Source: Rhodoferax sp.
Lineage (GTDB): Bacteria; Pseudomonadota; Gammaproteobacteria; Burkholderiales; Burkholderiaceae_C
Length of the DNA: 64,000 bases
Assembly: GCF_018063565.1 (NCBI RefSeq)
Contig: NZ_JAGPBB010000005.1
Coordinates: forward strand, 28,471 to 92,470
Reading direction: 5' to 3'
The notes beneath the pieces are model-generated. The model saw only the letters and a list, made by a program, of their open reading frames with translations. It did no database searches and had not been told where the DNA came from. Numbering within the stretch: the first letter of the stretch is position 1; every line of letters begins with the position of its first letter. Of this stretch, positions 2,590 through 60,664 are shown one piece after another. The translations under genes were made by a program, and so were the position numbers.

Positions 2590-2967
2590 ATGGCAATCGG
2601 CTGGTTGACGGTCTTGAAAATGGTGCCTTGGGCGGATGTGATTGAAAACGCGCCCAAGGTGGCGATCGGCGCGAAGAAACTCTGGGACAAGGTGGGCAAG
2701 AAGCCCGCCGCACCGGAGCTGGCCCCCACGGTGGTGTCCAGCACGCCAGAGCCAACCCTGGCACAGCTGCGCGACCAGGTGGCGGCACTGCAACAGGTCA
2801 CCGAAGATTTGCATCAGCAGATGCTGGACTCGACCGAACTGATCAAGACACTTGCCGAGCAGAACACCCAACTGGTGAAACGGGTGGAATCCAACCGCAA
2901 GCGGCTGCTGTGGCTGGCCTTGCTGCTGTTGCTGCTGGCTGGCTGGTCGGTGATGAAGTTTTATTGA
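2590..2967 (+). CDS. Small coiled-coil protein with a C-terminal membrane anchor, function unknown
   Basis: The protein has 125 residues if it starts at ATG 2590. An in-frame start at 2515 would add a basic, unpromising leader. The N-terminal ~40 residues (MAIGWLTVLKMVPWADVIE) look amphipathic and are followed by a Pro/Ala hinge. A heptad-like helix covers about residues 58-98 (AQLRDQVAALQQ to KTLAEQNTQLVKRVE). The last ~20 residues are a basic patch plus one strongly hydrophobic segment (LLWLALLLLLLAGW), which suggests a tail-anchored inner-membrane protein. I recognise no named family. It ends 40 nt before recC, and the gap is filled by a dispersed repeat (2963-3010), so cotranscription is possible but unproven. 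Confidence 0.7.
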   Translation: MAIGWLTVLKMVPWADVIENAPKVAIGAKKLWDKVGKKPAAPELAPTVVSSTPEPTLAQLRDQVAALQQVTEDLHQQMLDSTELIKTLAEQNTQLVKRVESNRKRLLWLALLLLLLAGWSVMKFY

Positions 2968-3010
2968 TAGCACACTTCTCTCTTTCAATAAGCGCCAAGG
3001 GCTGATTTTG
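2963..3010 (+). repeat. Dispersed AT-rich element, intergenic copy before recC
   Basis: The stretch has GATAGC on the left and AATAAGCGCCAAGGGCT followed by GATTTTG on the right. These words recur in this window at about ten other places. It fills the gap between the small gene and recC and includes the TTG that opens the longest recC frame, along with its AAGGG ribosome-binding candidate. Copy boundaries are approximate. Confidence 0.5.
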
Positions 3011-6000
3011 TTCACGAAAGCGCCGGAACGCCCACCCGTTGACGCTGCGCCGCCACGTGGTTTCATGGTGCTGCATGGCAACCGTCTGGAGGACTTGCGC
3101 GACCTGCTGGTGCAGTACCTGCAGGCACATCCGCTGCCACCGCTGGTGCCCGAAGTCATCCTGCTCCAAAGCAATGGCATGAAACACTGGCTGGAACTCG
3201 CCCTTGCCGATGACGCGGCGCTGGGCGTCTGCGCCGCGACCCGCATGGTCTTGCCCAGCAGTTACCTGTGGCAGATGTACCGCACGGTGCTGGGTGCCGA
3301 TGCGGTGCCATCCCGGATGCCGTTTGACAAGGCCGCGCTGCTTTGGCGGCTGCTGCGTTTGCTGCCAGCATTGTGCGAAACCCGCCCGGTGTACGCACCT
3401 TTAAAACGCTATCTGTCGGGCGACAACGCGCCGCGCAAGCTGTACCAGCTGGCGCTGCAGATTGCCGACGTGCTGGACGCCTACCAGAGCTATCGCGCCG
3501 ACTGGTTGTCCGACTGGGCGGGTGGGCTGGACCAGCTGCGCGGGCCGCTGGGCCAGTCACAGGCTTTGGCACCTGAGCACGCCTGGCAGGCGCAACTGTG
3601 GCGCGACCTTCGCACCGATGTGGGGGAAGGCTTGGCCGAGGCCTCGCGCGCCAGTGTTCACGAACGATTCTTGGCCGCCCTGAGTAATTTGAGTAGCTCT
3701 GAAAACAAGAGCTCTCAGCGCACGTCCGGATTGCCGCAACGCTTGATTGTGTTTGGAATCTCATCGCTGTCGATGCAGTCGGTGCAGGCGCTTGCCGGAC
3801 TGGGCCAAGTGTGCCAGGTACTGATGCTGGTGCAAAACCCGTGTCAATATTACTGGGGCGACCTGGTGGAGGGCCATGCCCAGCTGCGTCAGCAGGTGCG
3901 CCGACGCCAGCCGGTCAAGCCTCAGCCGGAACTGGTGACCACTGCCTCGCACCCCCTGCTGGCGTCGTGGGGGAAGCAGGGGCGCGACTACCTGCATTTG
4001 CTCGATGGTTTTGACCAGCCCGAGCAGTACCGGGCGCACTGGCAACGGGTGGACGTGTTTGTCGATCCTGCGGGTGAACCTGCGACACAGCTGGCGCAGC
4101 TGCAGTCGGCCATCCTGAACCTGACGCCACCACCGCCCGCACCGGTGGCGCAACCGATCGATGGCTCGATTGAATTCGTTACCGCCCACAGCGCCCAGCG
4201 CGAGCTGGAAGTGTTGCAGGACCATCTGCTGGCCTGGCTGGACGCCGATCCTGCCTTGCAAGCGCGCGAGGTCATGGTGATGGTGCCTGACATGGCGGTC
4301 TTTGCGCCGCATATCCATGCGGTGTTTGGCCGCTTCACGCCGGGGCAGCCGCGTCATGTGCCGTACTCGGTGGCCGATACCCCGGCGTGCCTGAGCCCGC
4401 TGGTACAGGCGTTGACGCAGCTGCTGAACCTGCCCGAGGCGCGTTTGACGCTGGCTGAATGGCTGAGCCTGTTTGAGGTGGCGGCGGTGCGCACCCGGTT
4501 TGGCCTGGATGCGGCGGGGGTGCAGCAAATTCAGAGCTGGCTGCAGACGGCCGGTGTGCGCTGGGGGCTCGATGCGGCGCACCGCCTGGCCTGGGGTTTA
4601 CCGCCAGGCGCACCGGATCTGGCGCATAACACCTGGGCATTCGGTCTGCGCCGGCTGCTGTTGGGCTACGCGCTCGGCCCGGTGGCGGGCGCTTGGGAAA
4701 GCGGTGCTGACGGGCTGTGGCAGGGCACGCTGGCACAACCGGCCATGAGCGGGCTGGACGGCCCGCTCATGTCTGCGTTGCTGGACTGGATCAACGCCAT
4801 CAGCCAAACCCTGCCCATGCTGCAGGCTGAACACTGCCCGGCGCAGTGGGGGCAGACCCTGCGTGCGCTGGTGGCGCGCTTTTTTGCCAGTGGCGATGAC
4901 ACGCAGGAGCTTGCCATCGGCCGCCTGCTGGCCCCGCTGGACGACTGGCTGCAAGCCTGCGAAGACGCGCAGCTCGACACCCCGCTGCCGCTGCAGGTGG
5001 TGCGTGAGCACTGGTTGTCCAAACTTTCCGAGGCGGGTCTGCAGCAACGCTTTTTTGGCGGCGGTGTGCAGTTTGGCACGCTGATGCCGATGCGCTCGAT
5101 TCCGTTCAAGGTGATCGCGCTGCTCGGCATGAACGACGGCGCTTACCCACGGGTGCAGGCGGCGCGTGATTTTGATTTGATGGCCAGCAGCTGGCGAGCC
5201 GGTGACCGCTCGCGCCGCGAGGACGACCGTTACCTGTTTCTGGAAGCGCTGTTGTCGGCACGGGAAAAGCTCTATGTGAGCTGGCAGGGTCACAGTGCGG
5301 CAGACAACAGCGCCCGCCCGCCCTCGGTGCTGGTGGCGCAGCTGCTCGATACGGTCAACGCCTGCTGGAGCCCGCCGCATCAGCCGCAGGCGCAGCCCTT
5401 GCAACCGTTTTCCAACGCCTATTTTGAGGCCGGTTCGGGCTTTGCCACCTATGCCGAAGATTGGCAGCGAGTCCGGCTTCCAGCGCTTGCTGAATCAGCG
5501 GATGAAGCGCCTGAAAAATTAGTCAATCCGGCGCTGGCCAGCGCCATCGCCCCTGCCCCCCAGGTGCTGACTTTGGGCGACCTGCAGTGCCTCCTGCGCC
5601 AGCCGGTCGAGGTGTTTTTGCGCCATCGGCTGCAAGTCGAGTTTGATGGCCTGGACGAGCTGGAGCAGGAAGACGAGCCGTTTGCGCTGAATCATCTGCA
5701 ACAGCATCGGCTGGGCGCAGCGCTGCTGCAGTCGGGTGCGCACGCGCAGGCGCTGGCGCAATTGCGCGGCGCCGGTGTGTTGCCCTTGGCCGGGTTTGGC
5801 CTGCGTGTCGGGCAAGACCTGTTGGAGCAGGCGCAGGCCGTGTGGCAGGCGCAAAACGCCTGGCTGCAGCGTTATCCGCAAGCGCTTGACGCGGTGACGG
5901 TGGACCTGCTGCTGGAGCCGGGCCTCAGCCTGAGCGGTGTCCTGTCCGGCCTGCATGCTGTAGCCGAGGTTGAGGCTGCACGTGCACCGTGTCTCCAGTT

Positions 6001-6511: not shown

Positions 6512-9500
6512 TGCTGCACACCCTTGACCCGTTGACGCTGCCTTTGAACGGCTTGCAGCTGATCGAAGCCTCAGCCGGCACCGGCAAGACTTTCACCTTG
6601 GCGGCGCTGTATGTGCGGCTGGTGCTGGGGCACGGAGCGGGCAGCGGGCCACTGGGGCCGGGGCTGTTTCCGCCGCAGATTCTGGTGATGACCTTTACCG
6701 ATGCCGCCACCGCCGAGCTCCGTGAACGCATCCGTGAACGGCTGGCGCAGGCGGCACGCTTTTTCCAGACCGGTGACCGGGGCGCAGCGGACGACTTTTT
6801 GCTGGCGCTGCAAGGCCAGGTCGACCCGGGGCAATGGCCGCTGTGCGCCTGGCGGCTGGACATGGCGGCGCAGTGGATGGACGATGCGGCGATTTTTACC
6901 ATCCACGGCTGGAGCAGCCGCATGCTCAAAACCCATGCCTTTGACAGTGCCAGCCTGTTCACCCAGAACCGGGTCGAAGACGCCGAGCGCCTGCAGCTGA
7001 TGGCCACGCGGGATTACTGGCGCCGCTGGTTTTATGCGCTGGACGCCCACGCGCTGGGTGCGCTCAAAGTCTTGGGTGACACCCCGCAGGCGCTGCTGGT
7101 GCGGCTGCAGGCGCGCTGGAAAGCCTCCGAGCGCGCGCCGCAGTCCGATGTCCCTGCGCCTGAGCCCCCCGACAGGCTACTGGAGCGTTGGTCGGTCTGG
7201 CAACAGCAGCGCATGCCGCTGGAATCACTGGCACGCCAGGGCTGGCGCGACGACGTGATCCAGGCGCTGCAGGCAGCCGCTGCCGCCAAAACCCTCAAGG
7301 GCTACCGCAGCGACTGGCTGGGCGGCTGGTTGGCCAAAATGGCCGCCTGGGCGCAGGGCGAAGAGATTGAGCCAGAGGTGCTGGCGCGCTTCAGCCGTGC
7401 CACGCTGCTGGCCAAAGGCTGGTTGGATGCGGCCCGCTGGCCGGTGCTGGCGGACATCGAGGCGCTGCACACGCATGGGCTGGGCGAGCCCGAGGTCGCC
7501 GACACCTTGCTGGCGCACGCCGCGCAGGCCGTGTTGCGCGACTACCAGCGCGCCAAGGCACAAGCGGCGCAGTTTGATTTTTCGGATTTGCTTCAAAACC
7601 TGTACCACGCCTTGCAGGCACCGGATGGGCGTCTGGCAGCAGCCATTGCGGCACAGTATCCGGTGGCGCTGGTCGATGAGTTTCAGGACACCGACCCCTG
7701 GCAGTTTGGAGCCTTGCGCAGAATCTATAGCTGTAAACCAAATCAAGATGTGCGCTGCAGCCCAATTTTCCATGAAACTGTGACGTATCAAGGTGAGGCG
7801 GGCACGGTGCCCGCATCGCTGGGCCTGATCATGATTGGTGACCCCAAGCAGGCTATTTACAGCTTTCGCGGTGCCGACCTGGCCACCTATCTGCAGGCGC
7901 GCGAGCAGGCCCAGGGCATTTACACGCTGCCGGGCAATTACCGCTCCACCCCCGCGGTGGTGACGGCCGTCAGCCGGATGTTTGCCCAGGCCGACGCGCC
8001 CTTTGGTAGCGTTCCCTTTGTGGCGGTCAAAGCCTGCAATCACCAGGTGCGGCCACTGCAGGTCGCGGGTCAAACCCAGGTGGCGCTGACGGTGTGGCAT
8101 GTGCCTTTTGAAAAGACACCGACCAAGGACGACTTTTTACAGGCGCTGTCGGCCGTCTTTGCCAGCCAGATGGTGACCTTGTTGCAGAGTGCGGCAGCCC
8201 GTCCCGGCGACATGGCAGTGCTGGTGCGCGACCGGCATGAGGCGACCGCGATTCGCGCGGCGCTGTCCGCGCGCTCGGTGCGCAGCGTTTATCTGTCCGA
8301 GCGCAACAGCGTTTATGCCAGTCAACAGGCCCATGATTTGTGGCGGATCCTGCGCGCGGTGGCACAGCCCGGTGCCAGCCGCCTGGTGCGCGCAGCGCTG
8401 GCCACGCCCACCTGGGCCTTGAGCTGGTCGGCGCTGGATGCGCTGCTGGCCGACGAGGCGGGCTGGGACGCCCAGGTGGAGCAGTTCATGCAATGGCAGC
8501 AGGTCTGGCAGGCGCAGGGTTTTTTGCCCATGCTGTACCGCCTGCTGCACGATCAGGGGCTGGCGGCGCGCCTGTTGCAGCGCAGCACCCAAGGCGAGCG
8601 CGAGCTGACCAATCTGCTGCATCTGGGGGAGTTGCTGCAGGCCGCAAGCCTGGCGCTGCAAGGTGAGGGCGCGTTGATTCGTTATCTGGAGGCGCAGTTG
8701 CGCCACCCGCAGGCCAGCGGTGACGCCGCGCAGCTGCGTCTGGAGAGCGACGCGCAGCTGGTGCAGGTGGTGACGGTGCACAAGTCCAAGGGGCTGGAAT
8801 ACCCGCTGGTGTTTTTACCCTTTGTTTCGCTGTACCGGGCCGCGGAAAAAGACGCCGACCGACCCGACGCCGAGCGTCTGGCCGAAGACATCCGCCTGTT
8901 GTATGTGGCACTCACCCGCGCCCGGCAGGCGCTGTGGCTGGGCGTGGCGCAGGTGCGCGGCGATGTGGACGGCCCCAACCCGCAGCCCAAAAGCGCCGTG
9001 TCCCGGCTGCTGGGTCGCCGCGTGCCGGGTGACCTGTGGGAGCGCCTGCAGACGTGGGTTTGTGCTGACGTCCAAGTGCAGGCCGCACCGCGGCCCAGCG
9101 GGGCGAGTTACCAGCCGGTGCAGGGCCATGCCCCCACACCGCAACCGGCCCTTCAGCCACAGCGCCGGTTGACGCAGCGCTGGTGGAGTGCCAGCTTCAG
9201 CGCCCTGACGCGCGGGCTGATGCCGCACGGCATGGCAGACTTGCCCACCGAGCGCGATGAAAAAATGGGCGATGCCCAGCTCGATGCAACCACGCCGGAT
9301 GAACTGCCGCTTGCCCTGATGGGCGGCGGACCAGGCGCGCCCGGTAGCGATTTGCTGGCCATCGAGCCGGCGTTCAACAGCTTTCCTGCCGGTAGCCGTT
9401 ACGGCACCTTGTTGCACGATCTGCTGGAGTGGCAGGCTGCCCAGGGGTGGCTCGCAGCGTCTGCGCCTGCCGACCCGGCGCTGACCCAGGCATGGGATGC

Positions 9501-10137
9501 CTCGCTGGCGCGGCTGGGCCAGCGCCTGAACCTGGAGCCGCAACACGGCGCCCTGCTGGACCCCTGGATACGCGCCATTTTGCTATCCAATATGCCGCTA
9601 GCGCATAAAGATAAAGTATCTGATGCTATTCAATTAGGATCGATTCCGACTGAGCACTGCTGGCCCGAGATGGCCTTTACCCTGCCGGTCCAGCGGTTGG
9701 CCAGCCAACGCCTGGATCAGCTGATCGGGCAACATCTGTGGCCAGGTCAACCGCGTGCCGCCCTGCCGCGCCAGGCACTGGAGGGCATGTTGACCGGGTT
9801 CATGGATCTGGTGTTTGTGCATCAGGGGCGCTACTACGTGCTCGACTACAAATCCAACCGTTTGCCGGACTACAGCGGGGTACAGCTGCAGCAGGCCATG
9901 CTGGCGCATCGTTACGATGTGCAGGCCGCACTGTATGTGCTGGCGCTGCACCGCTTGCTGCGCTCCCGTCTGGGCCCGAGCTATGACTACGAGCGACACA
10001 TGGGCGGCGCCCTGTACCTGTTTTTACGCGGTATTGACCAGCCCGGGGGTGGCCTGTTGCCATTGCAGCCGCCGCGTGCGCTGATTGAGGCGCTGGATCA
10101 GGCGTTTGGCGCGACGGCGCGACTGGAGGTCGCCTGA
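6511..10137 (+). CDS. recB: RecBCD enzyme subunit RecB (exodeoxyribonuclease V beta)
   Basis: RecB is the 3'-5' helicase and only nuclease of RecBCD. Helicase motif I is EASAGTGKTFTLA near residue 20; motif II is DEFQDTD near 390; GDPKQAIYSFRGAD follows; motif VI includes LLYVALTRAR. The C-terminal nuclease domain carries MDLVFVHQGRYYVLDYKSN near residues 1095-1115, with the catalytic Asp and the DYK triad. Length (~1208 residues) is normal. The start is ATG 6511 (GTG 6508 is also in frame), overlapping the recC stop; the recB stop overlaps the recD start, so translation is probably coupled. Oddity: between RRIY and MIGDPKQ lie 34 residues where E. coli has about 9, and a second AT-rich patch lies near residue 1030. 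Confidence 0.95.
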   Translation: MLHTLDPLTLPLNGLQLIEASAGTGKTFTLAALYVRLVLGHGAGSGPLGPGLFPPQILVMTFTDAATAELRERIRERLAQAARFFQTGDRGAADDFLLALQGQVDPGQWPLCAWRLDMAAQWMDDAAIFTIHGWSSRMLKTHAFDSASLFTQNRVEDAERLQLMATRDYWRRWFYALDAHALGALKVLGDTPQALLVRLQARWKASERAPQSDVPAPEPPDRLLERWSVWQQQRMPLESLARQGWRDDVIQALQAAAAAKTLKGYRSDWLGGWLAKMAAWAQGEEIEPEVLARFSRATLLAKGWLDAARWPVLADIEALHTHGLGEPEVADTLLAHAAQAVLRDYQRAKAQAAQFDFSDLLQNLYHALQAPDGRLAAAIAAQYPVALVDEFQDTDPWQFGALRRIYSCKPNQDVRCSPIFHETVTYQGEAGTVPASLGLIMIGDPKQAIYSFRGADLATYLQAREQAQGIYTLPGNYRSTPAVVTAVSRMFAQADAPFGSVPFVAVKACNHQVRPLQVAGQTQVALTVWHVPFEKTPTKDDFLQALSAVFASQMVTLLQSAAARPGDMAVLVRDRHEATAIRAALSARSVRSVYLSERNSVYASQQAHDLWRILRAVAQPGASRLVRAALATPTWALSWSALDALLADEAGWDAQVEQFMQWQQVWQAQGFLPMLYRLLHDQGLAARLLQRSTQGERELTNLLHLGELLQAASLALQGEGALIRYLEAQLRHPQASGDAAQLRLESDAQLVQVVTVHKSKGLEYPLVFLPFVSLYRAAEKDADRPDAERLAEDIRLLYVALTRARQALWLGVAQVRGDVDGPNPQPKSAVSRLLGRRVPGDLWERLQTWVCADVQVQAAPRPSGASYQPVQGHAPTPQPALQPQRRLTQRWWSASFSALTRGLMPHGMADLPTERDEKMGDAQLDATTPDELPLALMGGGPGAPGSDLLAIEPAFNSFPAGSRYGTLLHDLLEWQAAQGWLAASAPADPALTQAWDASLARLGQRLNLEPQHGALLDPWIRAILLSNMPLAHKDKVSDAIQLGSIPTEHCWPEMAFTLPVQRLASQRLDQLIGQHLWPGQPRAALPRQALEGMLTGFMDLVFVHQGRYYVLDYKSNRLPDYSGVQLQQAMLAHRYDVQAALYVLALHRLLRSRLGPSYDYERHMGGALYLFLRGIDQPGGGLLPLQPPRALIEALDQAFGATARLEVA
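7719..7765 (+). repeat. Dispersed AT-rich element, copy inside recB beside motif II
   Basis: CTATAGCTGTAAACCAAATC is followed by GCGCTGCAGCCCAATTTTCC. The ATAGCTG and GCGCT..AG.CC words match the other copies. It is translated as SCKPNQDVRCSPIF and opens the extra RecB segment between RRIY and the GDPKQ motif. Codons here (AAA, CCA, AAT, CAA) differ from the GC-rich surroundings. Confidence 0.42.
9583..9640 (+). repeat. Dispersed AT-rich element, second copy inside recB
   Basis: TTTTGCTATCCAATATGCCG, then CTAGCGCATAAAGATAAAG, then GATGCTATTCAATTAGG. The TGCTAT, CTAGCGCATA and GCTATT words recur in the other copies. It is read in frame as LLSNMPLAHKDKVSDAIQLG near residue 1030, just before the nuclease domain, with a cluster of otherwise rare codons (CTA, GTA, TTA, GGA). 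Confidence 0.52.
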
Positions 10138-13158: not shown

Positions 13159-14493
13159 TCAAGTGGACTGCGCGCGGGCGGCAAGCCGCAGGTGCGTCGC
13201 CATGGCCTCGGCCAGCAAGCTGGCGCTGGCTTCCGGTAGACGGGCGGCGTCAAATCCGATGTTCAGGATCAGCTGGTTCTGGTAAGTGCTGGCCGCGGTG
13301 AACAGGGTCTGATAGGGCATCGGACACAACGCAAAGGAAATTGCCTCCACCGCCGGGTCTTCGCTCACCGTGTCGACCACGCCCAGGTTGCTGACCATGG
13401 TATTGGGCAGCGAAGCCAGCGATTTTTTTCGGAAAGCCGCCATGTGCTCAGGTAAAACGGGTGCGCCGTTGAGTCCGAACATGTGGTAGAGCAGGTGGCC
13501 TTCACCACGGGCGATCTGCCGTCGAGTCTGGCTGATGACGTCTCGCGCCAGGTCCCAAATGTCGGTGTCTGCGCCGACCCGAAAGGTGTTGGAGATCAAC
13601 GAGGTAAAAAACCCGGTCGGTGCGGTGGGTTGGGCCGGCTGCAGATGTTGGCGCAAGTCCACCGGACAAGACAATAAGAACACCGTCGACGGTGCATCGG
13701 GCTGTAACTGGCACTGCGCCAACAACTGGGCCGCACACAGCAGACCGTGTACGCTGCTGCCACGTGCTCGGGCCTGGGTGATCAAGGCCTGGGTGAGCTC
13801 GGCATCCAAGCGCTGGCGCAGCCAGCGGGGCCGCCGCTCGGATGCCTCGGCGGCCAGCCAGGGGATGGGCGGCACCGCGCCATGACGCCGGTAGTCATCG
13901 ATCAAGGTGGCTTTGAGTTGTTTTGCGGCCTCGGGCTGCTCGGTCCAGCGAAACTGCGGTGGAAACGCATCGACCATGGCTGGCAATGCAGCGGGGCGCG
14001 CAGCCTGCGACGTGGCGGCCGGCGCGGCCAGCAGGCGCAGCAGGCGCGCCAGCATGGCGCTGCCGGAGCGGCCGTCGGCAATCGCATGGTGAAAACTCAA
14101 GCCCAGCACCGAGCGTGCGGGCGCGACAAGCTCCAGATACAGGCAACGCATCAAGGGTGCAGTGCCGGTGGCAAAGGGCTGCGAGAGTTCGTGCTCGATC
14201 CAGCCCTGCCAGTCCTGTGCGCCACACCGCCGGATTTGCAGCGTGACGGGCTGGCCCGGAGCGGGTTCAAAGCGCAGGCCTGTGGTGTCGGTCCAGCTGA
14301 TGCTGGCTTGCAACAGCTGGTTTTCCTGCTGGATCAGGTCCAGTGCCGCCTGAATGCGCCCGGGCTCAAGATGCCCGGTGCGCTCGGCAAACACCACAAA
14401 GTTCATGCACGAGATGTGGTCTTGCAGAAAGAAAAAAGCCTCACCCGGATCAAGCGGGCGGGGCAGAGTTGCGGCGGCTAAGGCCGCTGTCAT
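13159..14493 (-). CDS. Condensation-fold acyltransferase (WS/DGAT or PapA-like)
   Basis: The 444-residue protein belongs to the CoA-dependent acyltransferase / condensation superfamily. The catalytic HHxxxDG motif is HHAIADG near residue 137. The opening [12 protein letters not shown] resembles the PLDRAE/MSPxE start of alcohol acyltransferases and PapA proteins, and a VSNLG segment near 367 matches the late conserved strand of the fold. It probably transfers an acyl group from a thioester to an alcohol or amine; the substrate is unknown. The start ATG overlaps the gcvP stop by four bases, so it is probably translationally coupled as the last gene of the glycine cleavage operon. That is an unusual partner and may be only positional. 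Confidence 0.72.
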
Positions 14494-17514: not shown

Positions 17515-17571
17515 GCAGAAATGGGGTCGGATCCCAAATCATCATGAGTTGGGCTCTGACCCCATTTCTGC
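17515..17571. repeat. REP-like palindrome between gcvH and gcvP
   Basis: A near-perfect inverted repeat has 23-nt arms with two mismatches and an 11-nt spacer (17538-17548). The left arm begins GCAGAAATGGGGTCGG and ends CCCAA; the right arm is TTGGGCTCTGACCCC then ATTTCTGC. The AAATGGGGTCAGAGCCC core is, to my knowledge, common in proteobacteria near REP-associated tyrosine transposases. No transposase gene is next to it. As RNA it would form a strong hairpin in the gcvH-gcvP spacer and could stop exonucleases or lower gcvP expression. Confidence 0.82.
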
Positions 17572-18022: not shown

Positions 18023-19168
18023 TTAGCCGCGGAAATAATTGGTCGGCACAAACGGCATCGACACCACTTGCATCGGTACCGCCTTGCCGCGCACCATGGC
18101 GTTGACCTTGGTGCCCAGCGACGCAAACTCAGGCGGCAGATAGGCCATGGCGATGGGCTGGTCGATGGTGGGGCCAAGCAGCCCACTGGTGACTTCGCCC
18201 AGGCGCTGACCGGTGGCGTCTTGCAGCTCGCTGTGCTCACGTACCGGAACCCGCTCCAGCGCCATCAGTCCCACACGTTTTCGGGCTAAAGCGCTTGTTC
18301 CACCTGCGAGTTGCGCTAGTATTTTATTAGCACCTGGAAAACCGCCTGCACGCGCGCCACCGGCACGACGCACCTTTTGCATGGCCCAGGCCAGGCCCGC
18401 TTCGACGGGCGTGGTGCTGGTGTCGATGTCGTTGCCGTAGAGCGGCAAACCGGCTTCAAGGCGCAGCGAATTGCGCGCGCCCAGGCCAATCGGTTTGACT
18501 TCAGGTTGTGCCAGCAAGGCTTGGGCCAAGGCCGGCGCGTCGCAGGCGTGCACTGAAATCTCAAACCCGTCTTCGCCGGTGTAGCCGCTGCGGGTCAAAA
18601 ACACCTCGATGGCTTGCGCGCCCGCTTGCACCCTGAAGTAGTCACCGGTCATGAACACCAGCTTTTCAACGCCGGGCGCCAGCCGCGACAGGGCCGCCAC
18701 AGCCTTCGGGCCTTGCAGCGCCAGCAGTGCGCGCTCGGGCATCGGGATGACTTCGCAATGGTGGCCGATTTTTGCCTGAATATGTGCAATGTCGGCGGCC
18801 TTGCAGGCACCGTTGACGATGACAAAGATGTCGGCACCCCGGTTGACAAACATCAGGTCGTCAAGAATGCCACCCTCGTCGTTGAGCAGCAGGCCATAGC
18901 GCTGTTTGCCCATCGGCAGGTCAATCACATCAACCGGTAGCAGCGACTCCAGCGCGGCCGCCGCTTCCGGGCCGACCAGGCGCAACTGGCCCATGTGCGA
19001 TACATCAAACAAACCGGCCGCGGCGCGCGTGTGCTTGTGCTCGGCCATCAGGCCGGCGGGGTATTGCACCGGCATCGAATAACCGGCAAAGGGCACCATG
19101 CGCGCGCCCAGCGCGATGTGCAGATCATTAAGGGGGACGCTCAACAGGGGAGCAGGAGACTCGGACAT
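18023..19168 (-). CDS. gcvT: Aminomethyltransferase, glycine cleavage T protein
   Basis: GcvT transfers the methylene unit from aminomethyl-lipoyl-GcvH to tetrahydrofolate and releases ammonia. The 381 residues from MSESPAPLL fit the family. Recognisable parts are [42 protein letters not shown] and the C-terminal barrel with RKRVGL and [11 protein letters not shown]. The longer upstream frame runs into the riboswitch and is not used. An AT-rich repeat patch at 18278-18333 encodes the [15 protein letters not shown] segment with a run of rare codons (ATA, CTA, ACA, TTA, CGA). It is the first gene of the operon. Confidence 0.96.
18278..18333 (-). repeat. Dispersed AT-rich element, copy inside gcvT
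   Basis: Read on the minus strand: GCTAATAAAATACTAGCGC, a 16-nt middle, then AAGCGCTTTAGCCCGAAAA. The CTAGCGC and AAGCGCT half-sites are the clearest pair among the in-gene copies. It is translated in frame, replacing a variable loop rather than clearly lengthening the protein. Confidence 0.55.
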
Positions 19169-19234
19169 CGTGTCACTCCAGGGGGGGCAGGCCAACAAAA
19201 AACCATGGCAAAACACACGGACTTGCCATGGGCT

Positions 19235-19485: not shown

Positions 19486-19541
19486 CCGCCAAATTCTACC
19501 TGCTCGGATTCGCGCTTGCAGTGTTGCGCGATGCGGCTGCC

Positions 19542-24424: not shown

Positions 24425-25349
24425 CACGACCGCGCCATCCACCCGACAACTGGGTCTTGGTGTGGCTGCGGGTCTGGCAGCGGGGGCCCTGTGGGGAATG
24501 GTGTTTGTGGTGCCCCGCATGACGCCCGGCCTGTCGTCGGTCGATCTGACGGCGGGGCGATTTGTCAGCTACGGTGCCATGGCGGCGCTGGCCATGGCCT
24601 TCACCTGGCGCAAACACCGCTGGCCAAGTCCGGCCCAGGCTGCCAGCGCCCTGGGCATGAGTGCGCTTGGCGCCACCGGCTATTACCTGCTGCTGGCGCT
24701 GTCCATCAGCGCGGTGGGCTCGGAGGTGCCGACCCTGATCATCGGAACCATTCCGATCTGGGTCATGTTGCTGGGTAAACCACAGGGCTTGAGATGGGCC
24801 GCGCTGCTGCCGGGTTTGCTGCTGACGGCGGGTGGCCTGGCGCTGATGATGCAGCACACTTGGGCCCATGCCAGCATGGGCATCACCGGTGGGCAGGAGT
24901 TCTGGTGGGGTGTGGCTTTGGCGCTGGCAGCCATGGTCAGCTGGACTGCCTTTGCGTTGCTGAATGCCGCCTGGTTGCGACGGCATCCGCTGGTCAGCGC
25001 TACCGAATGGAGTAACTGGTTGGGTATTGCCACCGGTTTGGGTGCCGTGTGCTTGTGGTTACTTCTGGGTTCGGAGTCAAATGACCTTCTGGCGCTGGAT
25101 GGGAAAGCCTTTATAGCTCTTGTTTGTATAGCTACTGGGATTGGTTCAGGCTGGGTTGCCAGCATTTTGTGGAACCTGGCCAGCCAGCGACTGAGTGTCA
25201 GTTTGTGTGGGCAGCTGATCGTGAGCGAGACCTTGTTTGGCCTGATGTATTCGTTCGCCTGGGACGGTCACTGGCCGGCGTCGGTCCAGTGGCTGGCGGC
25301 ACTGCTGTTTACGCTGGGTATAGTGGCGTCCATTCAAGCGCACCGTTAG
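24405..25349 (+). CDS. EamA-family DMT transporter
   Basis: The 314-residue protein has about ten hydrophobic segments in two EamA repeats (ALWGMVFVVPRMTPG in the first, SWTAFALLNAAWLRR near the second). This is an inner-membrane drug/metabolite-superfamily permease, probably an exporter; the substrate is not predictable. The ATG at 24405 lies within the end of the SDR gene, giving a 20-nt overlap and suggesting translational coupling. A repeat-like AT-rich patch (25104-25140) encodes FIALVCIATG within a transmembrane helix. The thioesterase gene follows after 33 nt. Confidence 0.87.
   Translation: MTVLASSTTAPSTRQLGLGVAAGLAAGALWGMVFVVPRMTPGLSSVDLTAGRFVSYGAMAALAMAFTWRKHRWPSPAQAASALGMSALGATGYYLLLALSISAVGSEVPTLIIGTIPIWVMLLGKPQGLRWAALLPGLLLTAGGLALMMQHTWAHASMGITGGQEFWWGVALALAAMVSWTAFALLNAAWLRRHPLVSATEWSNWLGIATGLGAVCLWLLLGSESNDLLALDGKAFIALVCIATGIGSGWVASILWNLASQRLSVSLCGQLIVSETLFGLMYSFAWDGHWPASVQWLAALLFTLGIVASIQAHR
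25104..25140 (+). repeat. Dispersed AT-rich element, copy inside the DMT transporter
   Basis: TTTATAGCTCTTGTTTGTATAGCTACTGGG contains two ATAGCT words about 17 nt apart. It is read in frame as part of a transmembrane helix with two rare ATA codons. It is short and has only one kind of half-site, so it is a weaker member of the family. Confidence 0.35.
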
Positions 25350-45183: not shown

Positions 45184-45195
45184 CGGTTGATTGGG

Positions 45196-45247
45196 AATAA
45201 AAACTGCTTTCAGCGCAATTCTGGTAAGGGATTGAAGCTATCAATAA
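45196..45247. repeat. Dispersed AT-rich element, intergenic copy before the EamA gene
   Basis: Read on the minus strand: TTATTGATAGCTTCAATCCC, then GCGCTGAAAGCAGTTTTTAT. It has the same TTATTGATAGC opening as the copy before recC and a GCGCT..AAGC right half. It fills the Rieske-EamA spacer. Confidence 0.5.
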
Positions 45248-46378
45248 CTAATCAGAGCCGGTCAGCATCTGTTGCCGGTACCAGGCGTGAAAGTGCTGCA
45301 TACCGTCTTCCATCGGGCTCTGATAGGGACCAAGCTCGTTGTCGCCGCGCCCATACAGGGCTTTGCGCCCGGCATCCATGCGTTCGCCAATTTCGTCATC
45401 TTCGATGCAGGTTTCCATATAGGCGGCTTGTTGCGCCTCGACAAACTCGCGCTCGAAGGCCTGAATTTCTTCGGGATAGAAGAACTCGACCCTGTTGAGC
45501 GTCTTGTCGACGCCCATGGGGTGCAGCGTTGACACTGTCAACACATGGGGATACCACTCGACCATGATATGCGGGTAGTAGGTCAACCAGACCGCGCCGC
45601 GCTCAGGCATCAGGCCCTGACGGTATTGCAACAGTGCTTGGTGCCAGCGTCGGTAAACCGGTGATCCGGGTTGGCCAAATTGGCTCGACACGCCCACCGT
45701 CTGCACCGAATAGTGACGTCCAAACTCCCAGCGCAAATCGTCACAGCTGACAAAATGTCCCAGTCCGGGGTGAAAAGGGGCGACGTGGTAGTCCTCCAGG
45801 TAGACCTCGATGAAGGTCTTCCAGTTGTAGTTGCAGGTGTGCAGCTCGACCTTGTCCAATACAAAACCTGAAAAATCCAGCGTGGTGCGCTCGCCCATGG
45901 CGGCAAGATCCTGGCTGACCTGGCAGTCATTGGCCTCAAACAGCAAACCATTCCACTCCTGCAGCGGGTAGTTGCGCAGGTTCAGGCAGGGGTCGTGGGC
46001 AAAGTGGGGCGCGCCGATCAGCTTGCCTGCGGCTTGACTGGCGCCACCATCGTAGGTCCAGCGGTGGATCGGGCAGACGATGTTGCCGCCACTGGCAGCC
46101 AGAGATCCGCGCCCCTGCAGCATGAGCGCCTGACGGTGTCGGCAAACATTGGAAACCAGCTCGACGCCGCGCTCGGTGTGCACCAGCACCCGCCCACCCT
46201 GTTCATGCGCCAGGGCGCAGAAATCGCCCACTTGTGGAACACTTTGCACGTGACCGACATAACGCGGCCCGCGTTGAAACAGGGTTTGTAACTCGCGCTG
46301 GTACAGCGCTTCATCAAAATAAGTTGAAACTGGTAGTTGGCCGGTGGCCTGCTGCAGTTGAAGACTTAAATCAGACAT
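45248..46378 (-). CDS. Rieske non-heme iron oxygenase, large subunit type
   Basis: The 376-residue protein has a Rieske 2Fe-2S centre with CRH near residue 78 and CPIHRW near 100 (two Cys, two His). The C-terminal catalytic domain has the mononuclear iron ligands in EVYLEDYHVAPFHPGLGHF near 191-209 and probably a later Asp. It resembles ring-hydroxylating dioxygenase and choline-monooxygenase-like alpha subunits (phenylpropionate dioxygenase large-subunit group). The substrate is unknown. No beta subunit, ferredoxin or reductase gene is next to it, so reductant must come from elsewhere. Confidence 0.88.
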   Translation of the reverse strand: MSDLSLQLQQATGQLPVSTYFDEALYQRELQTLFQRGPRYVGHVQSVPQVGDFCALAHEQGGRVLVHTERGVELVSNVCRHRQALMLQGRGSLAASGGNIVCPIHRWTYDGGASQAAGKLIGAPHFAHDPCLNLRNYPLQEWNGLLFEANDCQVSQDLAAMGERTTLDFSGFVLDKVELHTCNYNWKTFIEVYLEDYHVAPFHPGLGHFVSCDDLRWEFGRHYSVQTVGVSSQFGQPGSPVYRRWHQALLQYRQGLMPERGAVWLTYYPHIMVEWYPHVLTVSTLHPMGVDKTLNRVEFFYPEEIQAFEREFVEAQQAAYMETCIEDDEIGERMDAGRKALYGRGDNELGPYQSPMEDGMQHFHAWYRQQMLTGSD

Positions 46379-47870: not shown

Positions 47871-47937
47871 AGTAAGCGCCTGATGTGGCCCTGGCCCAAT
47901 GTTGATATGCCCTTATAGCTATTAAAAGTAAAGCTTA
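47871..47937 (+). repeat. Dispersed AT-rich element, intergenic copy between ispA and dxs
   Basis: AGTAAGCGCCTGATGTGGCC on the left and CTTATAGCTATTAAAAG then TAAAGCTTATG on the right carry the AAGCGC and ATAGCT words in reverse order to the recC copy. It runs up to the dxs start and thereby shapes its ribosome-binding region, which has no good Shine-Dalgarno sequence. Confidence 0.45.
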
Positions 47938-49799
47938 TGCTGATGAATATTCCGTATCCCCTGCTGCAAGGCATTCATACCCCGGCAGATTTGCGGCGGC
48001 TGGCAAGAACCCAGCTCGAAGCTTTGTCGACGGAGCTGCGGGCTTACCTGCTGGACAGTGTTGCCAAAACCGGAGGCCACCTCAGTTCCAATCTGGGCAC
48101 GGTTGAGCTCACGGTCGCCCTGCACTACGTGTTCAATACCCCGCACGATCGGGTGGTGTGGGACGTCGGGCACCAGACTTACCCCCACAAGATCCTGACC
48201 GGACGCAAGGACCGCATGGCCAGTCTGCGCCAACTGGGTGGGCTGAGCGGCTTTCCGCAACGGGCCGAGAGTGAATTTGACGCCTTTGGCACGGCGCACT
48301 CCAGCACCTCGATCTCAGCGGCGCTGGGCATGGCGATGGCGGCCAAACTCAAGGGCGAGGAGCGCCAGGCGATCGCGGTGATTGGTGATGGTGCCATGAC
48401 CGCCGGCATGGCTTTTGAGGCGCTCAACAACGCCGGTGTGGCTGACTGTAATCTGCTGGTGATCCTCAATGACAACGATATGTCCATCAGCCCGCCGGTG
48501 GGTGCGCTCAACCGGTACCTGGCCAAACTGCTCAGCGGCCAGTTCTACACCACCGCCAAAAGTGCCGGTAAAACCGTGCTGAAGGGCGCGCCGCCGCTGT
48601 TTGAACTGGCCAAGCGCTTTGAAGAATCGGCGATGGGTATCGTCAAGCCCATCACCCTGTTTGAGAAATTTGGTTTCAACTATGTCGGACCCATTGACGG
48701 CCACGATGTGGAGACACTGGTGAGTGTTCTGGAGAACATTCGTCATCTCAAAGGACCGCAGTTTCTGCATGTGATCACCAAAAAAGGCCAGGGCTACAAA
48801 CTCGCCGAGGTGGACCCGATTGCCTACCATGGACCTGGCAAGTTTGATCCGGCAGTCGGTCTGCAAAAAAACAGCGCCGTGGCGCTGCCAAGCTTCACCC
48901 AGGTTTTTGGTGACTGGTTGTGCGACATGGCGGCGGCCGACGACCGGTTGGTGGCGATCACCCCTGCCATGCGTGAGGGTTCGGGTATGGTCGAATTCGA
49001 AAAGCGCTTTCCCAAACGGTTTTTTGACGTAGGTATTGCGGAGCAACATGCGGTGACCTTTGCTGCTGGCCTGGCCTGTGAGGGCTTGAAGCCGGTGGTG
49101 GCGATCTACTCCACCTTTCTGCAGCGGGCTTACGACCAGTTGATCCATGATGTGGCGATACAGAACCTACCCGTGGTGTTTGCGCTTGACCGCGCCGGTC
49201 TGGTCGGTGCCGATGGTGCGACTCACGCCGGGGCTTACGACATCCCTTATCTGCGCTGCATTCCCAACGTCAGCCTCGCCTGTCCTGCCAACGAGAACGA
49301 GTGCCGCCAGCTGTTGAGCACCGCCTATGCACAGTCCGGGCCGGTGGCGGTGCGTTATCCGCGCGGCGTGGGTGCCGGTGTGCCGGTGCAAAGCACTTTG
49401 GATGCCTTGCCGTTTGGCAAAGGCGAAATCTGTCGGCACGGTTCGCGGGTGGCCTTTCTTGTCTTTGGCACACTGCTGTATGCAGCCCTGGAAGTTGCAG
49501 AAAAGCTCAACGCCACGGTGGTCAACATGCGCTGGGTCAAGCCGCTGGATGTTGCCCTGTTGTGCCAGGTCGCCGCGACCCACGAAGGCCTGGTGACCCT
49601 GGAGGAGGGAGCGCTCATGGGCGGCGCAGGCAGTGCTGTCCTGGAAGCATTGGCCGCGGCGGGGCTCAGCTTGCCGGTTCTGCCCTTGGGCCTGCGTGAT
49701 GAGTTCATCGAGCATGGTGATCCGGGCAAACTGCTGGCTTTGCAGGGTCTCGATGCGAGCGGTATCGAAGCCAGTGTCAGGGCGCGTTATTTCGCGTGA
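47937..49799 (+). CDS. dxs: 1-deoxy-D-xylulose-5-phosphate synthase
   Basis: DXS joins pyruvate and glyceraldehyde 3-phosphate with thiamine diphosphate, the first step of the MEP isoprenoid pathway. The 620-residue length is standard. Motifs are [13 protein letters not shown] and [12 protein letters not shown], then the ThDP site [18 protein letters not shown] with [13 protein letters not shown]. The catalytic Glu is in [16 protein letters not shown] near residue 367, and [10 protein letters not shown] and [15 protein letters not shown] follow. It starts at ATG 47937 (an in-frame ATG at 47943 follows). It is downstream of ispA, the common proteobacterial order. Confidence 0.97.
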
Positions 49800-55710: not shown

Positions 55711-55716
55711 CGCTCC

Positions 55717-56442: not shown

Positions 56443-57287
56443 AGTCGAACTCAAGTTTTCAATCATTAAGGTCACTAGCGCATACCCAATATGCGTTTAA
56501 AGCTATGTTAACAATAGCTTTTGGTGCGGCTTCACTGGGCGTTGCCGCACAGTCCATCACGGTGGCGTCAACCACCTCGACTGAGCAGTCGGGCCTGTTT
56601 GGCTATCTGTTGCCAGAGTTCAAGAAGGCCAGTGGCATCGATGTCAAAGTGGTGGCCGTGGGTACCGGCCAGGCCATCGACATGGGGCGCCGCGGCGACG
56701 CCGATGTGATGTTTGTGCATGACAAGGTGGCCGAGGAGAAGGCAGTGGCCGAAGGGTTTGCCGTCAAACGTTTTGAAGTCATGTACAACGACTTTGTTCT
56801 CATTGGTCCCAAAGCAGATCCGGCCAAAACCAAGGGCAATGACATTGTCGAAGCACTGAAGAAGATCGCCACAGCCAATGCCGAGTTCATTTCGCGTGGC
56901 GACAAAAGTGGCACCCATGCCGCTGAACTGCGCTACTGGAAGCTGGCGGACCTGAGCGACAAAATGGGCAGTGGCTACAAGTCCTGCGGCTGTGGCATGG
57001 GACCGGCCTTGAATATGGCGGCGAGTTCGGGCGGCTACGTGTTGGCTGACCGTGGCACCTGGCTCAATTTCAAGAATCGGGCGGAGCTGGCAGTGCTGGT
57101 GGAAGGCGACAAGCGTCTGTTCAACCAATACGGCGTAATGCTGGTCAACCCGGCCAAACACCCTCACGTCAAAGCCGTCGATGGTCAAAAGTTTGTCGAT
57201 TGGCTCATTTCTGCCCCCGGACAGGCGGTGATAGGCAATTACAAGATCGGTGGCGAGTCCTTGTTTTTCGCCAACGCCGCCAAGTGA
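56439..57287 (+). CDS. tupA: Tungstate-binding protein TupA
   Basis: The 282-residue periplasmic protein begins with a signal peptide of unusual composition (LRSLAHTQYAFKAMLTIAFG, cleavage near GVAAQS). Part of it is encoded by a copy of the dispersed AT-rich element. The mature start VASTTSTEQSGLFGYLLP carries the TTTSTxxSGL motif of TupA, and GTGQAIDMGRRGDADVMFVHD, SRGDKSGTH and YVLADRGTWL complete the oxyanion site. It gives high-affinity tungstate uptake, probably for tungsten or molybdenum enzymes (inference). Confidence 0.95.
   Translation: MKSNSSFQSLRSLAHTQYAFKAMLTIAFGAASLGVAAQSITVASTTSTEQSGLFGYLLPEFKKASGIDVKVVAVGTGQAIDMGRRGDADVMFVHDKVAEEKAVAEGFAVKRFEVMYNDFVLIGPKADPAKTKGNDIVEALKKIATANAEFISRGDKSGTHAAELRYWKLADLSDKMGSGYKSCGCGMGPALNMAASSGGYVLADRGTWLNFKNRAELAVLVEGDKRLFNQYGVMLVNPAKHPHVKAVDGQKFVDWLISAPGQAVIGNYKIGGESLFFANAAK
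56464..56520 (+). repeat. Dispersed AT-rich element, copy inside the tupA signal peptide
   Basis: CATTAAGGTCACTAGCGCAT, then ACCCAATATGCGTTTAAAG, then CTATGTTAACAATAGCTTT. It contains CTAGCGCAT (also seen in recB) with its inverted partner ATGCG, and a CTATGTTAACAATAG inner palindrome. It is translated in frame as the start of the signal peptide with rare codons (TTA, AGG, CTA, ATA). Confidence 0.58.
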
Positions 57288-57311
57288 ACCGGCACCCGGG
57301 CAGGCGGTAGC

Positions 57312-58342: not shown

Positions 58343-58587
58343 CAGCGACGATTCGGGGGTACTGCACAAACCACGCAGCCCGGACATTATCGCGGCCCGG
58401 GTACCCTTGATAATGCGCAATCAGCTACAGGAATTCACCATGAGGAAGCCGCCCAAAGTTGCCATTTTTTTGTCCGCTTGTGCTCACGGCAGTGGCGTGG
58501 CGGGACTCAACGCTGCGCCGCCAAAACGCTGTGGCACGTTGTATGACCCACAGCAGCCCCATCATGCACGCGCCGTCTGAGGCCCCC

Positions 58588-59208: not shown

Positions 59209-59224
59209 AGCGGCGACTGCCTGA

Positions 59225-60664
59225 CTACAGGCTGCGACTGCGTGCCAGCGGTGGATTCTTGGCGAAGTAGCGCTCGATCCCGCGCATCAAGGCATCGGCC
59301 AACTGCTCCTGATAGTCGTCGCTGTTGAGCTTGATCTCTTCTTCCGGGTTGCTGATGAAGGCGGCCTCCACCAGCACGCTGGGGATGTCGGGTGCCTTGA
59401 GCACCGCAAACGACGCCTGTTCCACCCGTGGTTTGTGCAGCTTGCCCACGCGCTGGATCTCATGGAGCATGTTGCCACCGAGTTGCAGGCTGTCCTTGAT
59501 CTGCGCCGTGGTGCTCATGTCAAGAATAGCGCGCTTGACCTGGGCATCACGTACTTTGACATTGACACCCCCAATCAGGTCGGCCTTGTTTTCCTTGTCG
59601 GCCATCCAGCGTGCAGCGCTGCTGGAGGCGCCGCCCTGGCTCAGGGCGAACACACTCGCCCCCTGCGGGTTGGGTGTGAAAAACGCATCCGCGTGCAGGC
59701 TGATGAACAGGTCTGCCTTGACCTTGCGCGCTTTGTCGACGCGGGTGTGCAGTGGCACAAAGTAGTCTGCATCACGTGTCAGAAAGGCGCGCATGGCGTT
59801 GCCCTTGCTGGTGGTCGCATTGATGCGTTCACGCAGCCGATGTGCCAGACGCAGCACCACATCTTTCTCATAGGTACCGGCCGGGCCAATGGCACCCGGG
59901 TCCTCGCCACCGTGACCGGGATCGAGTGCAATGATGATCAGCCGGTCGGTCGCATCGCCCGCCAGCGACGCTGCGCTTGTGGCGCCTGCATTTTTTGCAA
60001 GGTTTTGTGCGCCAGCGCTTTCTCCGTATGGTTTATTAGCTATATTAACAGTGGCAATCTGTTGGGCGTCACCCGGTCGGGGAGGCGCAGCGGACACCAT
60101 GGCCGCGGCTGCTGTGCCCTTCTGCGCAATCAGTTCACCCAGCGGGTCGTGGTCCTGGCCGGATTGCGGCGCGACAGAGCTGCCCGCCTGTGCGGATGCA
60201 GCGCTGGTATCCTGTAAGCGTTCGGCAATCAGCGCCGCCAGCGGGTCTTGCACTTGCGTCGGGTACAAGTCAAACACCAGCCGGTGCCGGTAGGCCGCCA
60301 CCGGTGGCAGGCTGAACACCTGCGGTGCAACGGATTGCTTCAGGTCCACCACCAGTCGAACCAGGCCGGGGGCAAACTGCCCGACGCGAATGCCATTGAT
60401 GGTGGGGTCGCTCGGGCCGACCTTGGCCACCAGCTCTTTCAACGCGGCGTTCAGCTCGATGCCGCTCACATCTACCGCCAGTCGCGGTGGATTGGGCACA
60501 AAATTCTGGGTAAAACTCAGCGACGCGTCCGATTCGATGGTGACGCGCGAGTAATCTACCGCCGGCCATACCCGCACCGCCAGAATGTTGGCGCCCCAGA
60601 CCAGATCCTGCCCGCTCAGCAGCAGCGCCAGGGTGCCGCCCTGGATCAGGGTGCGTCGTTTCAT
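59225..60664 (-). CDS. amiC: N-acetylmuramoyl-L-alanine amidase (AmiC type)
   Basis: A periplasmic amidase that splits the peptide from peptidoglycan glycan during cell separation. The 479-residue protein has a twin-arginine-like start (MKRRTLIQGGTLALLLSG), an N-terminal AMIN septum-targeting domain (~25-130), a low-complexity linker, and a C-terminal Amidase_3 domain. Zinc and catalytic residues are in IALDPGHGGEDPG near 240, KDVVLRLAHRL, ISLHADAF and LVEAAFISNPEEE. The linker contains a copy of the dispersed element. Its start overlaps the tsaE stop by four bases. Confidence 0.94.
   Translation of the reverse strand: MKRRTLIQGGTLALLLSGQDLVWGANILAVRVWPAVDYSRVTIESDASLSFTQNFVPNPPRLAVDVSGIELNAALKELVAKVGPSDPTINGIRVGQFAPGLVRLVVDLKQSVAPQVFSLPPVAAYRHRLVFDLYPTQVQDPLAALIAERLQDTSAASAQAGSSVAPQSGQDHDPLGELIAQKGTAAAAMVSAAPPRPGDAQQIATVNIANKPYGESAGAQNLAKNAGATSAASLAGDATDRLIIIALDPGHGGEDPGAIGPAGTYEKDVVLRLAHRLRERINATTSKGNAMRAFLTRDADYFVPLHTRVDKARKVKADLFISLHADAFFTPNPQGASVFALSQGGASSSAARWMADKENKADLIGGVNVKVRDAQVKRAILDMSTTAQIKDSLQLGGNMLHEIQRVGKLHKPRVEQASFAVLKAPDIPSVLVEAAFISNPEEEIKLNSDDYQEQLADALMRGIERYFAKNPPLARSRSL
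60001..60050 (-). repeat. Dispersed AT-rich element, copy inside the amiC linker
   Basis: On the minus strand: TGTTAATATAGCTAATAAAC, then GAGAAAGCGCTGGCGCAC, then AAAACC. It carries the ATAGCTAATAAA and AAGCGCTGG words seen in gcvT and elsewhere. It is translated as VNIANKPYGESAGAQN in the disordered linker before the amidase domain. Confidence 0.55.

What the first reader, a model, noticed from the sequence alone, without database searches (positions are those of the whole stretch)
2963..60050. A dispersed AT-rich element family, mostly inserted in frame inside genes
About eleven AT-rich patches share the words GATAGC/ATAGCT, CTAGCGC and AAGCGCT at spacings of roughly 10-20 nt, often as imperfect inverted repeats. 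Three are intergenic (2963-3010, 45196-45247, 47871-47937). Eight lie in coding sequence without breaking the frame: recC twice, recB twice, gcvT, a DMT transporter, tupA and amiC. Each in-gene copy is a cluster of codons rare in this genome (ATA, CTA, TTA, ACA, GGA). That pattern looks like a mobile or gene-converting miniature element tolerated as peptide, comparable in principle with Rickettsia palindromic elements. I recall similar words in other Comamonadaceae genomes but know of no formal description.
Basis: partly seen in the sequence, partly recalled or inferred. Interest (0 to 1): 0.75.

Follow-up and report, generated by a model that had tools for sequence, protein, structure and literature searches.

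The report
Genome-wide 70-bp motif written over genes
Hundreds of copies of one 70-base DNA word pattern are scattered through Rhodoferax and some related bacteria, and about half of them lie inside genes where they are spelled out mostly by choosing different codons for the same protein rather than by inserting extra DNA, so the pattern looks like a DNA signal read by some still unknown protein and not like simple jumping DNA.

Summary
The unit is a sharply bounded, dyad-symmetric stretch of about 70 nt, some 800 per family-positive genome by extrapolation, found in 22 of 141 genera of the family and 0 of 387 genomes elsewhere in the order.

In PurK, PepN, PriA, GcvP and MutL the site aligns within one residue to solved homologs. 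Family-positive Rhodoferax spell PurK and PepN sites with element-matching synonymous codons; family-negative relatives do not. Some sites did gain length: Tex +26 aa, groES-groEL spacer +32 to 60 nt against eight short spacers.

Best reading: a genome-wide double-stranded DNA recognition motif overlaid on genes, working like uptake sequences or HIP1; its reader is unknown. Two motif pairs of this family were listed in 2017 without explanation.

The parts
56456..56527 (-). element copy over the 5' part (codons 7-29) of a TupA-like solute-binding protein gene
9579..9650 (-). element copy in recB (3' part), antisense to the gene
   Evidence: PWM 38.1; R2 E=0.005; same alignment region hit in 8 other Rhodoferax-type recB genes
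25070..25141 (-). element copy in an EamA/DMT transporter gene
   Evidence: PWM 35.9; Pfam EamA
59993..60064 (-). element copy in amiC, between AMIN and amidase domains
   Evidence: PWM 29.7; Pfam AMIN and Amidase_3
45191..45262 (-). intergenic element copy
   Evidence: PWM 26.4
2946..3017 (+). element copy at a gene end / spacer upstream of recC; the stop codon of the upstream gene lies in its left part
   Evidence: PWM 24.7; sequence
5461..5532 (-). element copy in recC, variable linker before the C-terminal domain
   Evidence: PWM 24.4; R2 hits in the same recC region of 7 Rhodoferax-type loci, the weakest at E=0.97
18269..18340 (-). element copy in gcvT, sense to the gene
   Evidence: PWM 23.2; Pfam GCV_T
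47872..47943 (-). intergenic element copy
   Evidence: PWM 20.7
7706..7777 (+). element copy in recB after the conserved IY motif; this loop is longer than in most non-family homologs
   Evidence: PWM 19.4; R2 hits at the same place in L073 and L076
   Evidence: PWM 16.6; MutL by Pfam; gapless to PDB MutL
3687..3758 (+). second, weak element copy in recC
   Evidence: PWM 15.5

Best explanation
The family is a genome-wide, sequence-specific DNA recognition motif of about 70 bp with dyad symmetry. Consensus about AATTAAATTGCTATTAAATTAATAGCTGCTAGCGCTTATTTAATAAGCGCTAGAGGCCAATTTTATTTAAAA, with a free centre. I infer that a double-stranded-DNA-binding protein or machine reads it. While that factor is active in a lineage, selection or a biased-transmission drive keeps and spreads matching sites. 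In genes this happens mainly by substitution at tolerant positions, largely synonymous, in reading frames that avoid stops. In spacers and linkers it happens also by length gain. When the factor is lost the sites erode to normal GC-rich codons. It works like DNA uptake sequences or HIP1, and is not a DUS by length. Shown: overlay without length change at most tested gene sites, synonymous spelling, loss in nested lineages, retention of words without hairpin in PurK and PepN. Inferred: the binding factor, and drive or selection as the force.
For: Extra residues at in-gene copies against solved homologs: PurK 0, PepN +1, PriA 0 (local register uncertain), GcvP +1, MutL 0, GcvT +3 (and 4 more just before the site), UDG-like +3. 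At synonymous third positions inside the element, other family-positive Rhodoferax match the element-preferred base in 112/169 (PurK) and 109/176 (PepN), family-negative ones in 44/150 and 20/78; the matrix excluded the tested site. Synonymous shuffling destroys the in-gene hits, 0.04 against 8-9. Zero-copy G002 and G039 are nested among positives and have GC-rich codons at both sites, so the motif was lost there. Loop columns are near random while columns 45 and 51, outside the search pattern, are nearly invariant, which neutral decay of dead copies would not give. Among copies of G000 (27) and G049 (24) the highest pair identities do not exceed column shuffles. In 12 PurK/PepN copies the stem does not fold better than shuffles (mean z about -0.5) while the words remain; in 10 groES-groEL spacers it does (mean about -2.1, 5 of 10 at z -2 or lower). 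Frames: of 41 in-CDS copies in window, G009 and G049, 15 antisense-0, 12 sense-1, 0 sense-0, the frame with 5 stops in the consensus.
Against: Some sites gained length: Tex copy 1 +26 aa, Tex copy 2 +10, WaaC +5-7; groES-groEL spacer 83-87 nt with the element against 27-51 nt in eight element-free genomes, though six other element-free spacers are 64-173 nt, three of them with another repeat. Edges are sharp and the models hold about 50 bits, far more than recognition of some 800 sites needs, as expected of a copied unit. In G009 (46 copies after removing segmental duplicates) copies are more alike than column shuffles: maximum P=0.005, top 1% and spread P<0.001 (the set mixes strong and weak copies); in G000 one of six measures is borderline (P=0.015). 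Identity at 4-fold sites inside elements equals that outside among positives (0.65 v 0.64, 0.63 v 0.59), and codon identity inside is not unusual among windows of the gene, so selection on the DNA is inferred from composition and losses, not from slow change. Conservation against motif strength: PurK rho 0.54 P=0.04, PepN rho 0.11 P=0.67. No binding factor was identified. Distant homologs cannot exclude an insertion later trimmed.
Confidence: 0.58

Rival explanations
1. A mobile palindromic mini-element (REP, MITE or RPE kind) that inserts or overwrites; copies in genes were trimmed to the old length or replaced a stretch of similar length by a template-switch or ssDNA-annealing event, then decayed.
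For: Sharp edges and constant length; length gain in Tex (+26 aa) and in the groES-groEL spacer; bimodal copy number among congeners; one pair of similar copies 1.8 kb apart without similar flanks, and a general excess of similarity, in G009.
Against: Seven of 11 tested gene copies add at most 3 residues. No clear copy lineages in G000 and G049. The single-copy RAYT-like gene occurs in positives and negatives and carries a different repeat. The closest G009 copies are segmental duplicates with similar flanks. Loop columns are random while others are nearly fixed.
Confidence: 0.27
2. A functional RNA or DNA hairpin, such as a bidirectional terminator, mRNA 3'-end stabiliser or attenuator, spread into spacers; in-gene copies are by-products.
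For: Spacer copies often abut stop codons and lie between convergent genes (34 of 125 copies in P. naphthalenivorans); groES-groEL copies fold better than shuffles on average.
Against: PurK and PepN copies lose the hairpin but keep the words; both orientations relative to transcription are used; covariation is weak (12/500 and 80/500 shuffles reach the observed pairing); one copy sits just before a separate terminator-like hairpin (L301).
Confidence: 0.1
3. A chance or codon-usage effect: AT-rich patches in a GC-rich genome that look alike.
For: In-gene copies are AT-rich at third positions.
Against: Synonymous shuffles, reversed window, Markov windows and non-family relatives give almost no hits.
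Confidence: 0.01

Closest known systems
Motif pairs GCTTAT(N)5AAGCG (Acidovorax ebreus TPSY) and ATAGCT(N)22CAAAAG (Polaromonas naphthalenivorans CJ2) in PMC5217627 (BMC Genomics 2017; section 13 and passages seen)
   Same: Similar words and spacing; 114 and 125 copies; close to gene ends, often between convergent genes; 18 of 125 in genes in P. naphthalenivorans. The paper says Rhodoferax ferrireducens T118 has the most significant pairs, 140.
   Different: Listed as potential novel motifs; in the parts I saw there is no 70-nt unit, no overlay on genes, no gain/loss analysis, no mechanism. Identity with our family is my inference from the words.
DNA uptake sequences (Neisseria) and USS (Pasteurellaceae); PMC2397512 passages
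   Same: Many copies, also inside coding sequences; inverted pairs acting as terminators; enriched in genome-maintenance genes (here copies lie in recB, recC, mutL, priA; enrichment not tested).
   Different: DUS is 10-12 nt (29 nt for USS recalled) and spaced about 1.1-1.5 kb; here about 70 nt and about one per 5-6 kb; uptake not tested.
HIP1 of cyanobacteria (PMC4390886, start of abstract seen)
   Same: Abundant palindromic motif, low in exceptional genomes; location in coding sequence is recalled.
   Different: 8-bp GCGATCGC containing methyltransferase sites; much shorter.
Rickettsia palindromic elements (review PMC10969869, passages)
   Same: Palindromic family found in frame in unrelated genes.
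   Different: RPEs of about 150 bp integrate as translational fusions; here most tested genes show little or no net insertion.
BRE, betaproteobacterial repeat element (PMC3110155, section 14)
   Same: Short repeat of Bordetella and Comamonadaceae, some entirely in coding sequence.
   Different: About 90 bp, 69% GC in Bordetella, 4 copies in R. ferrireducens T118; ours is AT-rich and far more numerous.

Membership tests
Rickettsia-type palindromic element | inserts in frame and lengthens the host protein | tested here: not met
   7 of 11 gene copies add at most 3 aa, 2 partial, 1 full (26 aa), 1 not judgeable
REP / RAYT system | cognate RAYT transposase linked to the repeat | tested here: not met
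   Y1_Tnp in 38 of 40 congeners, positive and negative; of 19 RAYT-like loci examined 17 carry both halves of a different inverted repeat downstream; our element lies beside the gene in 5 of 7 positive single-copy loci
REP / RAYT system | extragenic location | tested here: not met
   CDS 16 of 33 (G009), 17 of 42 (G049), 8 of 12 (window), by my gene caller
REP / RAYT system | GTAG or CGTC tag at one end | tested here: inconclusive
   column 22 is A in 18 and G in 9 of 27 copies before TAG; criterion from title and start of abstract of PMC3733652
MITE | terminal inverted repeats and target-site duplication | tested here: inconclusive
   dyad symmetry present; no conserved flank beyond columns 4-74; duplication at individual sites not tested
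DNA uptake sequence / USS | strong over-representation, including overlay on coding sequence | tested here: met
DNA uptake sequence / USS | short core of 10-12 nt | tested here: not met
   information spread over about 70 columns
DNA uptake sequence / USS | promotes DNA uptake in competent cells | not testable with these tools
   needs a transformation assay
HIP1-like motif | 8-bp GCGATCGC | tested here: not met
   consensus differs and is about 70 nt
BRE | GC-rich 75-91 bp repeat | tested here: not met
   our copies have 28-61% GC, mostly 35-50%; BRE 69%
Rfam RNA family | match above gathering score | tested here: not met
   only two glycine riboswitches in window and 5 loci, none at an element

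The most novel reading that the evidence does not exclude
Comamonadaceae carry an unknown genome-wide recognition system: a protein reads a 70-bp dyad-symmetric site present some 800 times, and selection or biased transmission rewrites the codons of conserved genes, including recB, recC and mutL, to build and keep these sites; as far as I know this would be the longest overlaid genome signal.
Probability: 0.4. Interest if true: 0.9.

Novelty: new variant of a known kind. Interest (0 to 1): 0.72.

Why it matters
If right, a widespread environmental bacterial family has a further class of long DNA signal that reshapes codon choice inside conserved genes, and the loss of the signal in nested lineages makes the search for its reader feasible by gene-content comparison. 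It also warns that low-GC rare-codon patches in these genomes need not be horizontal inserts or inserted peptides.

Tried and rejected
Simple mobile insertion: rejected as the general route by gapless homologs. RAYT as mobiliser: Y1_Tnp in positives and negatives, with its own different repeat. Similar G009 copies as proof of copying: the closest are segmental duplicates with similar flanks; one further pair is left open. Orientation with replication: same-strand clustering among 96 of the listed G009 sites P=0.016, in G263 P=0.30, no clear relation to local GC skew in 30 loci; left open. Regular spacing along G009: not seen (CV 1.09, null range 0.82-1.19, 98 listed sites). RNA structure by covariation: weak. 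An exact search for ATAGCT near AGCGCT in the window gave 0 hits, since window copies are diverged. My gene caller mis-assigned some G049 genes: two translations look like shadow frames, so the G049 coding and frame counts (seven antisense-1) are less safe than the others. Literature: 9 full-text searches of open PMC papers; of the papers I opened only PMC5217627 appears to hold this family; other hits were seen as listings; subscription journals are not covered, so 'not described' is limited to those searches. Similar words in other Comamonadaceae genomes were in my own memory before the first search; that is recall, and the counts come. Genomes of the genome search are unnamed; the genus Rhodoferax is inferred from the closest RecD loci.

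Full report
What was checked. In the genome that holds the window (G000, 4.13 Mb, 196 contigs) a core pattern gives 14 exact hits, all with the same 28-nt spacing although the pattern allowed a range of five, and none for the reversed pattern. From 13 of these a covariance model R1 was built; its 133 matches at E<=10 in the genome are a lower bound, since only 150 of 1610 candidates were scored. An information profile of 27 copies shows sharp edges near columns 4 and 74 and no conserved flank. So there is a discrete unit of about 70 nt.

Window copies. The reversed window reaches -1.8 bits at most; 36 homologous loci of relatives outside the family (653 kb) give one hit; 31 loci of family-negative Rhodoferax (138 kb) give 2, against 78 in 35 loci of positives (160 kb) that were picked for known sites; 100 synonymous-codon shuffles of the window genes give 0.04 hits on average, maximum 1. 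Model R2 alone (28 copies) finds only two window copies with E below 0.01, so most are diverged. GC3 is lower inside than outside in 9 of 9 in-gene copies.

Distribution. The exact core occurs in 39 of 299 genomes of the family, 22 of 141 genera, with no reversed-pattern hit. Elsewhere in the order 0 of 387 genomes match a slightly different core, against 5 of 12 inside the family; the reversed control gave 6 hits. Plasmids: three places in two records, Diaphorobacter sp. HDW4A and Acidovorax sp. DW039; the best place in each lies 26 and 12 nt upstream of a gene. Of 80 named loci around recD, all 29 R2 hits at E<=1 lie in 9 Rhodoferax-type loci and none in the other 71.

Density and location. 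In ten evenly placed 20-kb stretches each of G009 and G049 the matrix finds 33 and 42 copies (the matrix was trained partly on the same stretches). With 12 in the 64-kb window this extrapolates to about 800 per genome. In coding sequence: 16 of 33, 17 of 42 and 8 of 12, against expected 0.83, 0.85 and 0.90 (binomial P 6e-6, 5e-11, 0.03), so genes are avoided but far from excluded. In-CDS frames over these three samples (41 copies): antisense-0 15, sense-1 12, antisense-1 7 (all in G049), sense-2 4, antisense-2 3, sense-0 none. Gene calls come from my own simple codon-usage caller, which mis-assigned at least two G049 genes.

Insertion or overlay. Eleven in-gene copies were compared with solved homologs. 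Extra residues at the site: PurK 0, PepN +1, PriA 0 with an uncertain local register, GcvP +1, MutL 0, GcvT +3 and 4 more just before it, a UDG-like protein +3, WaaC +5 to 7, Tex copy 2 +10 and Tex copy 1 +26, AmiC in an unusually long linker that cannot be judged. PurK, PepN, WaaC and the UDG-like gene are from G000, PriA and Tex from G009, GcvP from L078, the others from the window. In RecB the 3' site lies in a variable loop of similar length in non-family relatives, while one relative (L073) lacks about 20-23 residues there; the other RecB site and the RecC site are in variable linkers, longer in several family-positive species.

Codons. PurK and PepN were collected from 30 Rhodoferax genomes each. 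The PurK protein at the site is gapless in all 30; at PepN seven genomes with 0 or 3 copies are 1-3 residues shorter. Family-positive genomes write the site with element words, family-negative ones mostly with GC-rich codons; a few negatives (G016, G026, G033, G038) show what may be remnants in PurK. At synonymous third positions inside the element, positives other than G000 match the element-preferred base in 112 of 169 (PurK) and 109 of 176 (PepN); negatives in 44 of 150 and 20 of 78 (positives are genomes with at least 40 R2 matches, negatives those with 0; genomes with 1-14 were left out). Inside-element 4-fold sites are 63-67% A+T in positives and 21-22% in negatives, against 15-21% outside. 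Identity at 4-fold sites inside equals that outside among positives, so slow change is not shown. A PurK+PepN tree of 23 genomes puts two zero-copy genomes, G002 and G039, inside a positive clade: the motif was lost there and the codons returned to GC-rich.

Spacer site. Of 29 groEL loci read, the groES-groEL spacer is 83-87 nt in 10 genomes with the element and 27, 28, 28, 37, 47, 49, 49 and 51 nt in eight without; six more without it have 64-173 nt, three of these with a different repeat; one positive genome has Ns there, and in four the spacer was not found. Two of the eight, G031 and G018, hold the family elsewhere. Here the element came with extra length. Ten spacer copies (G022 in place of G021) fold better than shuffles on average (mean z about -2.1, 5 of 10 at -2 or lower), whereas 12 copies in PurK and PepN do not (about -0.5, the one low value by another pairing). 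What persists in these genes is the set of words, not the hairpin. Covariation tests are weak.

Copy history. In G000 (27 copies) and G049 (24) the highest pairwise identities equal those after shuffling each column among copies (one of six measures in G000 at P=0.015); in G009 (46 after removing segmental duplicates) they exceed it, P=0.005 for the maximum and P<0.001 for the top 1% and the spread. So a signature of recent copying is absent in two genomes and possible in one.

RAYT. A single-copy RAYT-like gene is in positives and negatives (38 of 40 genomes have Y1_Tnp). Downstream of it 17 of 19 loci share both halves of another inverted repeat with words like GTCCCCAATTA and AATCTGACCCC. 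Our element lies between gene and that repeat in 5 of 7 positive single-copy loci. So this RAYT is unlikely to be its mobiliser.

Mechanism. The simplest account of synonymous overlay, fixed spacing with a free loop, retention of words without a hairpin, erosion in nested losers and lack of clear copy lineages is a double-stranded DNA recognition motif held by selection or by biased transmission. Uptake sequences behave like this: the 2008 Neisseria paper describes inverted pairs as terminators, acquisition by recombination, and enrichment in genome-maintenance genes (passages). Length, density and untested uptake keep me from calling it an uptake sequence. The length gains in Tex and in the groES-groEL spacer, and the G009 similarity, leave room for a copied or overwriting unit.

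Prior art. PMC5217627 lists two motif pairs that match this family and says R. ferrireducens T118 has the most motif pairs of the genomes tested. I read section 13 and passages; supplementary tables were not available. It suggests only that transcription initiation is not their main role.

Noticed in passing
window 19232-19494 (-): Two glycine riboswitch aptamers in tandem (Rfam RF00504) upstream of gcvT.
   Followed up: no
L252, L254, L259, groES-groEL spacer: Three family-negative Rhodoferax genomes carry another repeat with words like ACGTACAGAAGTACGTTCCGG in the spacer where positives hold the element; possibly BRE of Bordetella, not compared.
   Followed up: partly
L326-L344, downstream of the RAYT-like gene: A single-copy RAYT-like gene kept across Rhodoferax, followed in 17 of 19 loci by its own inverted repeat (GTCCCCAATTA ... 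AATCTGACCCC).
   Followed up: partly
window 17515-17571: A 28-nt inverted repeat, 89% complementary, with similar GGGGTCRGA words; may belong to that RAYT repeat family.
   Followed up: no
L073, recB: This Comamonadaceae genome lacks about 20-23 RecB residues at the 3' element site where eight relatives carry the motif.
   Followed up: no
L165:2701-2772, 4241-4311, 14166-14237: Three similar element copies in one 20-kb stretch of G009 with similar flanks: duplication including the element.
   Followed up: yes
core hits of several genomes: The inner loop occurs in both orientations relative to the outer asymmetry (TTGATGGATAAG and TTATCCATCAAG), as if it flips.
   Followed up: no
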